From positions 466,001 through 530,000 of the forward strand of contig NZ_CP110644.1 in assembly GCF_026153515.1 (NCBI RefSeq): a stretch of 64,000 nt of DNA, read 5' to 3'. Position numbers and translations under genes: made by a program. The notes below the pieces were generated by a model. It was given only the letters and a program-made list of their open reading frames with translations, ran no database searches and had not been told where the DNA came from. This document shows positions 21,233-38,388 of the stretch, piece by piece. This DNA comes from Pseudomonas sp. KU26590. GTDB taxonomy: Bacteria; Pseudomonadota; Gammaproteobacteria; Pseudomonadales; Pseudomonadaceae. Every line of letters starts with the position of its first letter. The first letter of the stretch is position 1.

Positions 21233-23998
21233 ATGAGTCTTGCGCCCCTCGTCCTGGTGGACGGTTCTTCTTATCTCTACCGCGCGTTCCATGCGCTGCC
21301 GCCGCTCATGACCTCCAAAGGCCTGCCCACCGGTGCGGTCAAGGGCGTGCTGAACATGCTCAAAAGCCTGCGCAGGCAATATCCCGAAAGCCCGTTTGCC
21401 GTGGTTTTCGACGCCAAGGGCGGAACGTTCCGCGACGCGCTGTACGGCGAATACAAAGCCAACCGCCCAAGCATGCCGGACGACATGCGCGTGCAGATCG
21501 ACTTCCTGCACAACTGCGTGCGAGGCCTCGGCTACCCGCTGTTGTGCGTCGAAGGCGTGGAGGCTGATGACGTGATCGGCACATTGGCACGCAGCAGCGC
21601 GGCCGCTGATCGTCCGGTGGTCATCTCCACCGGTGACAAGGACATGGCGCAGTTGGTCGATGGCCACATCACGCTGGTCAATACCATGACCGGCAGTGTG
21701 CTGGACGTCGCCGGCGTGAAAGAAAAGTTTGGCGTCGGCCCGGAACACATCATCGATTACCTAGCGCTGATGGGCGACAAAGTCGACAACATCCCCGGCG
21801 TGCCCGGCGTTGGCGAGAAAACCGCCGCGGGCCTGCTGGTGGGCATCAACGGTGGCCTGAAAGAGCTTTACGCAAACCTCGACAAACTGGCAGCGCTGCC
21901 GCTTCGGGGCGCTAAATCCCTGCCGGCCAAGCTCGAAGAGCACAAGGAAATGGCCTTCCTGTCCTACGAGCTGGCGACCATCAAGATCGACGTGCCGCTG
22001 GACATCGAGCTCGACGCCCTGCACTGCGGTGAGCCTGATCGTGAAGCGCTGATGGCGCTGTACACCGAGCTGGAATTCAAGAGCTGGATTACCGATTTGC
22101 AGCGTGACGCCCGCCAGGAAGGCGCGGAAGTTGTCCCTGCTGCCGAGCCAGCGCCGATCATCGAGGCCACGTACGAACTCATTCTTGAGCAAACCCAATT
22201 CGACGACTGGCTGAAGAAGCTCAACGCCGCGCAGTTGTTCGCCTTCGTGGTGCAGAGCAATGGCACCGACGCCCAGCGCGCGCAGATTGTGGGTCTGTCC
22301 TTTGCGATCAAGACTCACGAAGCCTGTTACATCCCGCTGACCCATTCCTATATGGGCGTGCAGCAGCAACTGGATCGCGACGCGGTATTGAAAGCGCTCA
22401 AGCCCATGCTGGAGGACGCGAGCAAAATCAAGGTCGGCCAGCACGCCAAGTTTGCGATCAACCTGCTGGCCAACTGCGCCATTGCTGGTGACCAGAGCCA
22501 GGGCATCGACGTGCAGGGCGTCAAGTTTGACACGATGCTCGAATCCTACGTGCTCGACTCCACCGCGACGCGTCATGACCGTGACAGCCTTGTTGCCAAG
22601 TACCTGGATCACACACCGGTCAATTTCCAGGACATCGCGGGCAAAGGCGCAAAACAGCTGAGTTTCGACCAGATCGCGCTGGAGCAGGCCGGCACCTATG
22701 CGGCTGAAGAGGCCGACTTGACGCTGCGCTTGCACGAGGTGTTGCAGGACAGACTGGCCAAGACGCCGAGTCTGGCGCCGGTGCTGAACGACATCGAAAT
22801 GCCGCTCATGCCCGTATTGGCCCGCATCGAGCGTCAAGGCGCACTGGTCGATGCCAAACTGCTGGGCAATCAGAGTGTCGAGCTGGGCAACAAAATGACC
22901 GAGCTTGAGCGCGAAGCGTTCGCTATCGCCGGTGAAGAATTCAATCTCGGCTCGCCCAAGCAGCTCGGGGTGATTCTCTACGAAAAGCTCGGCATGCCGA
23001 TCATCAGCAAGACCGCCACCGGCCAGCCGTCCACGGCAGAAGCGGTGCTCGCCGAACTGGCCGAGCAGGAATATCCGCTGCCGAAGGTGCTGATGCAGTA
23101 CCGCTCGATGAGCAAGCTGAAAAGCACGTACACCGATCGCCTGCCGGAGCAGATCAACCCGCGCACCGGGCGAATCCACACTTCCTACCATCAGGCGGTG
23201 GCGGTGACTGGGCGTCTGTCCTCCAGTGACCCGAACCTGCAGAACATTCCCATCCGGACCGCCGAGGGTCGTCGCATTCGTCAGGCGTTTGTCGCTCCCA
23301 AAGGCTACAAGCTGCTGGCGGCGGACTACTCGCAAATCGAACTGCGGATCATGGCGCATCTGGCCAAGGACGAAGGCTTGTTGCACGCCTTCCGCAACGA
23401 CCTGGACGTCCACCGTGCAACGGCGGGCGAGGTGTTCGGTGTCGAACTGCCGGACGTGACCAACGACATGCGCCGCAGCGCCAAGGCGATCAACTTCGGT
23501 TTGATCTACGGCATGAGCGCGTTCGGGCTGGCCAAGCAGATTGGTGTTGATCGCAAGCAATCCCAGGCGTATGTGGACCGCTATTTCGCGCGCTATCCGG
23601 GCGTGCTCGATTACATGGAGCGCACCCGTGCTCAGGCGGCGGAACAAGGGTACGTCGAGACCATTTTCGGTCGTCGCCTGTACCTGCCGGACATCAACGC
23701 GAAGAATCAGGCGTTGCGCAAAGGCGCCGAACGCATGGCGATCAACGCACCGATGCAAGGCACGGCGGCTGACATCATCAAGCGGGCGATGGTGGCGGTG
23801 AACGGCTGGCTGGACGCGTCAGGTCTGGATGCTCGCGTCATCTTGCAGGTTCACGATGAACTGGTGCTGGAAGTGCGTGAGGATCTGGTCGAGCAGATCA
23901 GCAAGGACATCCGCGTGCACATGAGCGGCGCGGCCGATCTGGATGTTCCGCTGTTGGTCGAAGTGGGTGTGGGGAATAACTGGGACGAGGCGCATTGA
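21233..23998 (+). CDS. polA: DNA polymerase I with apparently inactive proofreading domain
   Basis: A 921-residue enzyme for Okazaki-fragment processing and repair. The 5' nuclease (about 1-290) is intact: LVDGSSYLYRAFHALPPL, FDAKGGTFRD, GVEADDVIGTLA. The polymerase has motif A DYSQIELR (Asp698), motif B RRSAKAINFGLIYG and motif C VHDELVLEV (Asp875). The 3'-5' exonuclease (about 310-500) keeps its fold but not its metal ligands: DTE of E. coli (355-357) is VVQ (339-341), Asp424 is Ala408 and Asp501 is Glu493, while Tyr497 is kept (Tyr489). ATG 21233 is preferred over an upstream TTG. Confidence 0.95.
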   Translation: MSLAPLVLVDGSSYLYRAFHALPPLMTSKGLPTGAVKGVLNMLKSLRRQYPESPFAVVFDAKGGTFRDALYGEYKANRPSMPDDMRVQIDFLHNCVRGLGYPLLCVEGVEADDVIGTLARSSAAADRPVVISTGDKDMAQLVDGHITLVNTMTGSVLDVAGVKEKFGVGPEHIIDYLALMGDKVDNIPGVPGVGEKTAAGLLVGINGGLKELYANLDKLAALPLRGAKSLPAKLEEHKEMAFLSYELATIKIDVPLDIELDALHCGEPDREALMALYTELEFKSWITDLQRDARQEGAEVVPAAEPAPIIEATYELILEQTQFDDWLKKLNAAQLFAFVVQSNGTDAQRAQIVGLSFAIKTHEACYIPLTHSYMGVQQQLDRDAVLKALKPMLEDASKIKVGQHAKFAINLLANCAIAGDQSQGIDVQGVKFDTMLESYVLDSTATRHDRDSLVAKYLDHTPVNFQDIAGKGAKQLSFDQIALEQAGTYAAEEADLTLRLHEVLQDRLAKTPSLAPVLNDIEMPLMPVLARIERQGALVDAKLLGNQSVELGNKMTELEREAFAIAGEEFNLGSPKQLGVILYEKLGMPIISKTATGQPSTAEAVLAELAEQEYPLPKVLMQYRSMSKLKSTYTDRLPEQINPRTGRIHTSYHQAVAVTGRLSSSDPNLQNIPIRTAEGRRIRQAFVAPKGYKLLAADYSQIELRIMAHLAKDEGLLHAFRNDLDVHRATAGEVFGVELPDVTNDMRRSAKAINFGLIYGMSAFGLAKQIGVDRKQSQAYVDRYFARYPGVLDYMERTRAQAAEQGYVETIFGRRLYLPDINAKNQALRKGAERMAINAPMQGTAADIIKRAMVAVNGWLDASGLDARVILQVHDELVLEVREDLVEQISKDIRVHMSGAADLDVPLLVEVGVGNNWDEAH

Positions 23999-24100: not shown

Positions 24101-24228
24101 GAATGGCTGACGTAGCCATTCATGCTCCTATGTTGTGTTAAGTGTTGGCAGATATCCGGACCCCTTCCGAGAGGTCTGGACTTGGACCCCGAACTTCCCC
24201 TCCCCACATGAAGTCCGGGGTTTTTTTT
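24101..24228 (+). ncRNA. ersA: ErsA regulatory small RNA (Spot 42 locus)
   Basis: The polA-engB gap holds an sRNA in many gammaproteobacteria (Spot 42 in enterics, ErsA in Pseudomonas). Here an AlgU promoter leads into a perfect first hairpin (GAATGGCT-GACGT-AGCCATTC, 24101-24121), then an unpaired U/G-rich stretch, then a second hairpin (CCGGACC...GGTCTGG, 24156-24177) whose loop carries the C-rich CCCCTTCC seed. A terminator follows (CCCCGAACTT...AAGTCCGGGG and eight Ts, to 24228). The ~128 nt length agrees with the ~132 nt ErsA. ErsA is known to target mRNAs such as algC and to be induced by envelope stress. Confidence 0.87.
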
Positions 24229-24237
24229 GCCTGCGAT

Positions 24238-37222: not shown

Positions 37223-37690
37223 ATGGGCTTCAAGCATTTCCATGCACTGACATTGGCGCTCCTTGCGAGCGCCAGCGTTACAGCCATGGCGGCCAACGAC
37301 GGTCAGTCTCGGGCGAACGAGCTGTTGAGCTCTGACCCCGAATACCGTGAGACGTGGTCAAGCGTGGTAAAGAAGGAAGAGCGACTGCCCGATTGGGTGA
37401 TCAATCTTTCTGGTGCCGCTGAGCAGATGAATGCCGTCACCGAAGACGGCGACAAGTACCTGGTAGGGCCGCTCTGCGAAACCCAGGACACTTGCCGCAA
37501 TAAGCGCCTCATTGTGGCGTTTAGTCTGAACAAGTCCCATGCGTACGCCCTGTTGGTCGAAGTGCCATCGGGACTTCCCGCAGACAAATCACCGACGCGT
37601 CATGCGGATTACCGGTTTTTGGGCAAACCAGATGAAGGCATGCAAGGCCTTCTGAAAGAGCAGCTCAAGAAAGATCCGAACTGGTACTGA
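37223..37690 (+). CDS. ivy: Ivy-family lysozyme inhibitor homologue with variant loop
   Basis: A 155-residue periplasmic protein with a signal peptide (cleavage near VTAMAAND) and the Ivy fold (EYRETWSSVVKKEERLPDWV, then LVGPLC). In E. coli Ivy the inhibitory loop is CKPHDC with a key histidine. Here the equivalent segment is CETQDTC, one residue longer and without histidine, so inhibition of c-type lysozyme may be weak or aimed at another enzyme. The position matches PA5481. Confidence 0.82.
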   Translation: MGFKHFHALTLALLASASVTAMAANDGQSRANELLSSDPEYRETWSSVVKKEERLPDWVINLSGAAEQMNAVTEDGDKYLVGPLCETQDTCRNKRLIVAFSLNKSHAYALLVEVPSGLPADKSPTRHADYRFLGKPDEGMQGLLKEQLKKDPNWY

Positions 37691-38388
37691 TCTGAATGAT
37701 GGCAGACCTGTCCCTGACAGATCTGCCTGATAGGCGCGCAGCCCGAAGACGGTGCGCGTATGACCAAGGGGCCGGGGCGTTGCGATCAAGGGAGTGATCG
37801 AAGCGGCCTAGGTGTACAAGGAGTACTCCCACACGTGGGCCGGGTCAGGCAAGCCGCAACGCAAGTCCATCGTTCGATACGGTTTAGCCGTTATCCGACA
37901 GTGGACTTGTGAAGCGCAAATATCCTCTATTCCCTTCAGGCTCTTTGGTCCTCATGAGTCCTAAATAGCGCCTTCCACACGTCCTACGACCGTATATCGC
38001 CAAAAATCCCCCGCTTCAATGGCTTGTCGGCCGTCTGTGACCAATCCGTCACATTGCCACCCCGCGTCGCACAAATCCGCTACAGGCGACGTTTTAGCCA
38101 CTTCTCAGCATTCCCACGTCGAGTAAATCCGCCCTCTTTTAGCGCATCCATGCGTAAGTGATTGATTTGCATCATGCCGATTCGGCATGGGGTAGTCATT
38201 TACGGCATTAGACGGTGGCAGTCACCGTGGGAATAGTTGCGCCTTTTTCGCCTGCTCAGAGCTCGGATGCTCGCCTGCGGCCACTTACGAGACAGTCCTG
38301 ACGGCGAGCGCGGCGTCGCGCTTGCTGGCAAGCGCAATGATGAACGTGTGGTTGGGGGATGCCTCGGCAATGACAACAAGGTAATGAC
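37691..38388. other. Intergenic region before gltP with two dyad elements
   Basis: 698 bp without a supportable gene. It holds a perfect dyad CATGCCGA-T-TCGGCATG at 38173-38189 and a hairpin ACGGTG-GCAGT-CACCGT at 38212-38228, both upstream of gltP and plausible operator sites. A sigma-54 site was looked for and not found. The rest shows no recognised structure. Confidence 0.5.

What the first reader, a model, noticed from the sequence alone, without database searches (positions are those of the whole stretch)
22247..22711. PolA has lost the catalytic residues of its proofreading exonuclease
Against E. coli Pol I, Asp355-Thr-Glu357 is Val339-Val-Gln341, Asp424 is Ala408 and Asp501 is Glu493, while the surrounding fold and Tyr497 (Tyr489 here) are kept. 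All four metal-binding carboxylates are changed, three of them to residues that cannot bind metal. The 5' nuclease and polymerase motifs are intact. The enzyme should therefore copy without 3'-5' editing, like Taq polymerase, and could raise error rates in gap repair. My memory is that other pseudomonads such as P. fluorescens keep the FDTET motif, so this may be a lineage trait.
Basis: partly seen in the sequence, partly recalled or inferred. Interest (0 to 1): 0.78.

Follow-up and report, generated by a model that had tools for sequence, protein, structure and literature searches.

The report
Pseudomonas Pol I without proofreading site
In this Pseudomonas and its relatives (the P. syringae and P. 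graminis groups) the DNA-repair enzyme DNA polymerase I has lost the active site that would let it correct its own mistakes; such losses occurred several times in the genus, and in the P. cichorii lineage an intact site seems to have come back through DNA exchange.

The parts
21233..23998 (+). polA, DNA polymerase I, 921 aa (stop included in coordinates)
   Evidence: open frame; Pfam 5_3_exonuc_N, 5_3_exonuc, DNA_pol_A_exo1, DNA_pol_A; only PF00476 match of the genome
21248..22045 (+). 5' nuclease (FEN-like) domain, aa 6-271
   Evidence: PF02739 and PF01367; acidic positions D10, D60, E110, D112, D113, D135, D137, D182, D185 invariant in the 35 aligned sequences; their role as metal ligands is recalled
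22172..22756 (+). 3'-5' exonuclease-fold domain with a disabled site, aa 314-508
22247..22261 (+). motif I: V339-V340-Q341-S342-N343, for E. coli D355-T356-E357-T358-D359
22454..22456 (+). motif II: A408 for E. coli D424
22697..22711 (+). motif III: Y489 (Y497 kept) to E493 (for D501)
22859..23989 (+). polymerase domain, aa 543-919, motifs A, B and C intact
   Evidence: PF00476 541 bits; motifs read

Best explanation
The gene makes a Pol I (5' nuclease and polymerase) whose 3'-5' proofreading domain is catalytically dead but structurally kept. SHOWN from sequence: all four carboxylates of the two-metal site are substituted; the Val form is fixed across the sampled P. syringae/graminis group except the P. 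cichorii lineage; in that group D355V with E357Q/K came before D501E and D424A; changes at otherwise conserved positions concentrate in the exonuclease domain; on the polA tree three other Pseudomonas lineages lost the site too; the P. cichorii lineage, nested in the exo-minus group, carries an intact site in a mosaic gene. INFERRED: without D355 and D424 the two metal ions are not held, so the enzyme neither edits mismatches nor idles at 3' ends; it nick-translates Okazaki junctions and repair gaps using base selection alone, extends mismatches and lesions more readily, and leaves residual errors to MutS. The loss was tolerable because Pol III has its own DnaQ proofreader. The dead domain persists as a scaffold between nuclease and polymerase. 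Exchange within polA moves segments between lineages, so the loss is not irreversible.
For: Residue identities against E. coli. Genus survey: 67 of 398 disabled, 328 with intact motif I, 3 unreadable (sum). States on a polA tree of 105 representatives that leaves the exonuclease columns out (5 changes between exo-plus and exo-minus, one of them the P. cichorii-type G018). Columns at least 98% conserved in 51 exo-plus representatives and changed in at least half of a clade: exonuclease 11 of 121 against 11 of 493 in the other two domains (clade 1), 7 of 121 against 6 of 493 (clade 2); exo-plus control subgroup 0 of 107 against 9 of 459. Replacement/synonymous odds EXO against POL: 2.64 in clade 1, 1.60 in exo-plus, p 2e-6. 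Exonuclease fold kept. DnaQ and MutS in 30 of 30 genomes. Species trees and mosaic. H. pylori Pol I, lacking D355, D424 and D501, was measured to lack proofreading (PMC3121766, passages).
Against: No assay. D501 is replaced by Glu and E357 by Gln, so a trace of metal binding cannot be excluded on sequence alone. The domain is still under purifying selection: dN/dS 0.104 in clade 1 and 0.070 in clade 2, against 0.081 and 0.179 in two exo-plus sets, so only the ratio to the polymerase domain is raised. The new Val339 shows 15 synonymous and 0 replacement changes (11 in clade 1, 4 in clade 2), which is not plain neutral decay. The shift in clade 2 is not significant on its own (p 0.07).
Confidence: 0.86

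Rival explanations
1. The exonuclease is weakened or altered, not dead: the remaining acidic residues (E493, D346, D495) hold one metal and give residual or changed activity.
For: E493 is a carboxylate; D346 and D495 show no replacement change in clade 1; the domain stays constrained.
Against: D355 and D424 are Val and Ala here. H. pylori Pol I lacks the same three aspartates and had no proofreading. The positions of Phe473 and Leu361, recalled as contacts of the 3' terminal base, also drift in part of the exo-minus sequences.
Confidence: 0.08
2. The substitution was selected, not merely tolerated: an editing-free Pol I gives better lesion bypass or nick translation in UV-exposed, plant-associated life, and the V-x-x-x-N state is a maintained new form.
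For: D355V and T359N appear in both large clades; Val339 is not replaced in either clade; several named members are plant-associated (names; ecology recalled).
Against: Stepwise loss and drift at other site positions look like relaxed constraint. 101 of 196 exonuclease codons have no replacement change in clade 1, so Val339 is not special. No ecological test was made, and the P. cichorii lineage, a plant pathogen (PMC4153583, passages), carries the intact site.
Confidence: 0.25
3. Exo-minus clade 2 got its dead motif from clade 1 by a short recombination tract, so the two big losses are one event.
For: Shared D355V, T359N and often Thr at the Leu361 position; the exonuclease-domain tree puts the two clades side by side (90/94).
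Against: With the motif columns left out they no longer group. Third positions of codons 331-350 of clade 2 are no closer to clade 1 than to exo-plus fluorescens-group genes (0.521 against 0.534).
Confidence: 0.15
4. The P. cichorii lineage never lost the site: it branches before the loss, or its odd polA is a fast-evolving native gene.
For: The node uniting the exo-minus group with G018 has only 79/57 support in the three-gene tree. In polA itself the 5' nuclease segment does not reject G018 outside the clade (p 0.196), and the exonuclease and polymerase segments do not reject it inside (p 0.127 and 0.074).
Against: G018 groups with P. syringae and viridiflava genomes at 100/100, and holding the 14 exo-minus genomes together without it is rejected by rpoB, mutS and mfd each (p 0.001, 0.006, 0.0002; concatenated 7e-6). 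PMC4153583 (passages) says three P. cichorii strains lie clearly inside the P. syringae group and P. graminis outside it. Identity falls at about codon 210 and recovers at about codon 850.
Confidence: 0.18

Closest known systems
Helicobacter pylori DNA polymerase I (HP1470; PMC3121766, passages read)
   Same: Full Pol I with exonuclease fold kept and Asp355, Asp424 and Asp501 missing; purified enzyme has no proofreading, extends mismatches and bypasses lesions
   Different: That paper says H. pylori lacks translesion polymerases and a mismatch repair system; of the 30 Pseudomonas genomes checked all keep MutS and DnaQ and 29 keep a family B polymerase, and the loss is within a genus
PolA1 with inactive exonuclease, Timinskas et al. 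2026 (PMC12926913, abstract and passages read)
   Same: Pol I orthologues with substitutions in the DEDDy motif, about half of those in more than 3000 species
   Different: There described as largely phylum-specific, commonest in Firmicutes, Tenericutes and Actinobacteria; the word Pseudomonas does not occur in its main text. Here the loss is inside one gammaproteobacterial genus, graded and apparently reversible
Bacillus stearothermophilus (Bst) and M. smegmatis Pol I structures
   Same: Family A Pol I with an exonuclease-fold domain; listed among the structural matches. That they lack proofreading is recalled

Membership tests
DNA polymerase I orthologues (PolA1) | 5' nuclease, 3'-5' exonuclease-fold and family A polymerase domains in one chain | tested here: met
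   PF02739, PF01367, PF01612, PF00476 above cut-off
DNA polymerase I orthologues (PolA1) | intact polymerase motifs A, B and C | tested here: met
   DYSQIELR, RRSAKAINFGLIYG, VHDELV in the translation; motif names recalled
Active DEDDy proofreading exonucleases | Asp-Glu-Asp-Asp metal ligands | tested here: not met
   V339, Q341, A408, E493
Active DEDDy proofreading exonucleases | Tyr of motif III | tested here: met
   Y489 for Y497; basal clade members such as G298 and G249 have Phe
Exonuclease-inactive Pol I (H. pylori type) | D355, D424 and D501 all replaced, fold kept | tested here: met
   D501 to Glu is conservative
Exonuclease-inactive Pol I (H. pylori type) | purified enzyme lacks 3'-5' exonuclease and extends mismatches | not testable with these tools
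   needs the enzyme assay

The most novel reading that the evidence does not exclude
Within Pseudomonas, Pol I proofreading is a switchable trait: lost at least four times by erosion of the metal site, and brought back in the P. cichorii/capsici/lijiangensis lineage when recombination replaced about 640 codons in the middle of a syringae-type polA with a foreign exo-proficient segment; exo-plus and exo-minus segments have also been exchanged between species of the fluorescens complex.
Probability: 0.53. Interest if true: 0.72.

Novelty: new member of a known kind. Interest (0 to 1): 0.56.

Why it matters
About half of bacterial Pol I enzymes lack the DEDDy site, but those losses are described as largely phylum-wide, so cause and consequence are hard to separate. 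Here closely related, cultivable species differ in the state of the site, with intermediates that have lost two, three and four of the ligands, and an apparent natural regain. This makes it testable what Pol I proofreading contributes to mutation rate, lesion bypass and Okazaki processing, and why bacteria can do without it. The affected group includes the P. syringae complex, whose evolution is intensively studied.

Tried and rejected
Sequencing error or pseudogene: rejected, same state in many genomes and an open, constrained frame. A second Pol I taking over: rejected, one PF00476 match. Compensation or co-loss: DnaQ 30 of 30, MutS 30 of 30, family B polymerase 29 of 30 (missing only in G298); none tracks the exonuclease state. 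Short-tract transfer of motif I between the two big clades: not supported by silent sites, left open. Full-length model: mean pLDDT 56, not used; the exonuclease domain alone gave 94. The first species tree had a wrong reading frame for G386 and was discarded. In one search the group 'put2+' contained the query itself, so its values of 1.00 mean nothing; one search repeats the comparison with other groups. E. coli numbers printed for positions above 611 are one too high. The p values on replacement counts treat changes as independent. 'P. corrugata subgroup' as a label for clade 2 is recalled; no P. corrugata sequence was seen.

Not in print, as far as these searches go (listings of 8 to 20 papers each): no title or abstract start listed describes loss or regain of Pol I proofreading in Pseudomonas, nor a P. 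syringae mutation-accumulation study. PMC6403173 (passages) mentions Desulfurella and Hippea PolA with a lost exonuclease domain. PMC11253446 and PMC3919608 (passages) gave nothing used. Effects of single Klenow substitutions and DNA contacts of Leu361 and Phe473 are recalled.

Full report
The gene. Window 21233-23998 (+) encodes a 921-residue DNA polymerase I with the usual domains, the only family A polymerase match of a 6.18-Mb, one-contig genome. The closest named relatives seen are P. graminis and P. petrae (98 to 99% protein identity, which may leave out the nearest records). The neighbours look ordinary: zinc-uptake-like genes and a homoserine-kinase-like gene upstream, the ErsA sRNA and a yihA/engB-type GTPase gene downstream (open frames, gene names recalled; ErsA).

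Spread in the genus. I surveyed 398 Pseudomonas genomes (one per species, the window's included). 303 carry the strict exo-plus motif I DNA pattern. 65 genomes match a pattern for the Val form, 66 hits in all, of which 6 lie outside polA, leaving 60 (places compared). The other 35 were read one by one: 25 have an intact variant such as DSETT or DTEAT, 5 have Val (G066, G334, G124, G200, G268), 2 keep Asp355 but have Lys or Arg for Glu357 and Glu or Val for Asp501 (G319, G156), and 3 are unreadable (G217 no match, G365 a fragment, G329 incomplete). Totals: 328 intact at motif I, 67 disabled (29 clade 1, 36 clade 2, 2 single), 3 unreadable. A separate pattern for motif III (YAAEDAD) is present in 365 of 398; the 33 without it are the 29 genomes of clade 1 (some by Phe for Tyr497), G156, G319, G217 and G365. 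So no genome counted as intact at motif I lacks it. Asp424 was not screened in the 303 beyond those read in full, and their hits were not each checked to lie in polA. Of the 36 clade-2 genomes 16 were read in full.

Two big clades and an order of loss. On a tree of 105 polA representatives with the exonuclease columns left out, exo-plus and exo-minus need 5 changes: clade 1, clade 2, L162, L166 and G018. Clade 1 holds the sampled P. syringae, P. viridiflava, P. caspiana-like, P. graminis and P. abietaniphila sequences; clade 2 holds P. brassicacearum, P. thivervalensis, P. kilonensis, P. mediterranea and P. gregormendelii among others (names). In clade 1 one basal branch has only D355V with E357Q or K (and Phe for Tyr497), another branch adds D501E, and the window's branch and P. 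syringae proper also have D424A. On this tree D424A needs two changes, though its starred branches force only one. In clade 2 D355V is universal; G107 keeps D424, the other representatives have D424E. Val and Asn at positions 339 and 343 arose in both clades (N in 18 of 19 clade-2 representatives), which I cannot explain fully.

Relaxed but not abandoned. Of columns at least 98% conserved in 51 exo-plus representatives, clade 1 changed 11 of 121 in the exonuclease domain against 4 of 200 (nuclease) and 7 of 293 (polymerase); clade 2 changed 7 of 121 against 0 and 6; L162 14 of 121 against 2 and 4. A control subgroup of 14 exo-plus proteins changed 0 of 107 against 0 of 187 and 9 of 272. L166 shows no excess (7 of 121, 3 of 200, 22 of 293); its exo-plus neighbour L142 has much of the same polymerase divergence (17). 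The positions lost include T358 and M458 in clade 1 and F473 in part of both clades. Replacement-to-synonymous odds of the exonuclease against the polymerase domain are 2.64 in clade 1 and 2.06 in clade 2, against 1.60 in exo-plus genes (p 2e-6 and 0.07); the 5' nuclease shows no such shift (p 0.27 and 0.34). The dN ratio EXO/POL is 3.16 and 2.13 against 1.67 and 1.40 in two exo-plus sets, but dN/dS of the domain itself is 0.104 and 0.070 against 0.081 and 0.179, so the domain is far from neutral. The nine clade-1 loci cut out have the same domain length as the window. Val339 has 11 and 4 synonymous changes without a replacement; 101 of 196 codons of the domain share that in clade 1. I read this as a domain kept as a scaffold after loss of catalysis.

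Loss, exchange and apparent regain. A tree of rpoB, mutS and mfd for 30 genomes places G018, which has an intact site, beside four P. syringae and viridiflava-type genomes (100/100), inside the exo-minus group. Keeping the 14 exo-minus genomes together without it is rejected by each gene (p 0.001, 0.006, 0.0002) and by all three (7e-6). G018 carries a P. cichorii-type PolA: the listed proteins with at least 92% identity over aa 215-840 are 17, of which 14 bear a name, all P. cichorii, P. capsici or P. lijiangensis, and all 17 have the intact site. PMC4153583 (passages) puts P. cichorii inside the P. syringae group and P. graminis outside. The G018 polA is a mosaic. Codons 1-210 and 845-921 are 0.955 and 0.927 identical in protein to P. 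syringae genes; the four stretches between have 0.62 to 0.81 to all six groups compared. In 30-codon windows a P. syringae gene compared with viridiflava-type genes stays between 0.73 and 0.93 in DNA throughout, whereas G018 compared with these genes falls to 0.56 to 0.85 between about codons 211 and 840. The donor is not identified; proteins P0138-P0140, and less clearly P0141, also exo-plus, share the foreign middle, and their place in the species tree is unknown. The simplest reading is that a foreign exo-proficient segment replaced the middle of an exo-minus gene. That the gene was exo-minus before is inferred. Against it: the node joining clade 1 and G018 is weak (79/57), and the polA segments alone do not decide (p 0.196, 0.127, 0.074).

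In the fluorescens complex the exo-minus alleles form one polA group, but their carriers are not one species group: holding the 7 sampled carriers together is rejected by rpoB, mutS and mfd (p 0.021, 0.0004, 0.0001; concatenated 8e-84). Exo-plus G046 is the species-tree sister of exo-minus G236 (100/100). It groups with clade 2 in its nuclease and polymerase segments (100/94 and 95/97) but stands apart in its exonuclease segment (p 5e-5 against sisterhood with G236; the nuclease segment also rejects that pair, p 0.02; the polymerase does not, p 0.11). Segments of polA have therefore moved between species; whether the dead or the intact form moved is open for clade 2.

Mechanism. With the ligands of both metals gone the enzyme should be unable to remove 3' nucleotides. 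The nearest tested precedent, H. pylori Pol I, lacks D355, D424 and D501, has no proofreading, extends mismatches and bypasses thymine glycol and abasic sites better than Klenow (PMC3121766, passages). In the window's organism DnaQ and MutS are present, so I expect a small error load in lagging-strand and repair patches. This is inference.

What is known. PMC12926913 (abstract and passages) reports that about half of Pol I orthologues in over 3000 species have DEDDy substitutions, largely by phylum. An inactive Pol I exonuclease is therefore a known kind. What I did not find in print is its repeated, graded loss and apparent regain inside one genus. Two of six non-Pseudomonas genomes of the same order also have wholly altered motifs (L235, L236), so the survey could be widened.

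Changes made on re-checking: clade 2 renamed after species actually seen; P. cichorii protein count, identity ranges and the segment tests against regain stated in full; the odds of the rival 'never lost' raised from 0.15 to 0.18 and of the novel case lowered from 0.55 to 0.53 for those tests.

Noticed in passing
window 24122-24236, +: ErsA (Pseudomon-1, RF01719) sRNA directly behind polA, 125.8 bits, between polA and a yihA/engB-type GTPase gene.
   Followed up: no
window 37761-37855, + (gene 37223-37690): ivy-DE RNA motif (RF02999) just behind an ivy-like lysozyme-inhibitor gene and ahead of a dicarboxylate transporter-like gene (gene names recalled).
   Followed up: no
L145 / genome G018, contig 1:42458-45217: P. 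cichorii-type polA is a mosaic with about 640 foreign codons in the middle and syringae-like ends; it carries an intact proofreading motif.
   Followed up: yes
L300 / genome G046: Exo-plus polA in a species whose species-tree sister is exo-minus; its nuclease and polymerase segments group with clade 2 but the exonuclease segment does not.
   Followed up: partly
L162 (G319) and L166 (G156): Two further single-genome losses that keep Asp355 but have Lys or Arg for Glu357 and Glu or Val for Asp501.
   Followed up: partly
L235 (G403) and L236 (G402): Two genomes of other families in the same order have PolA with all three exonuclease motifs rewritten.
   Followed up: no
polA aa 746 (E. coli 753 by my count) in clade 1: Met in 32 of 32 clade 1 representatives where exo-plus genes have Gln, close to the O-helix; a possible partner change in the polymerase site.
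   Followed up: no
genome G200, contigs 10, 34 and 35: Three mutS hits with the same score on three contigs, probably redundant assembly.
   Followed up: no
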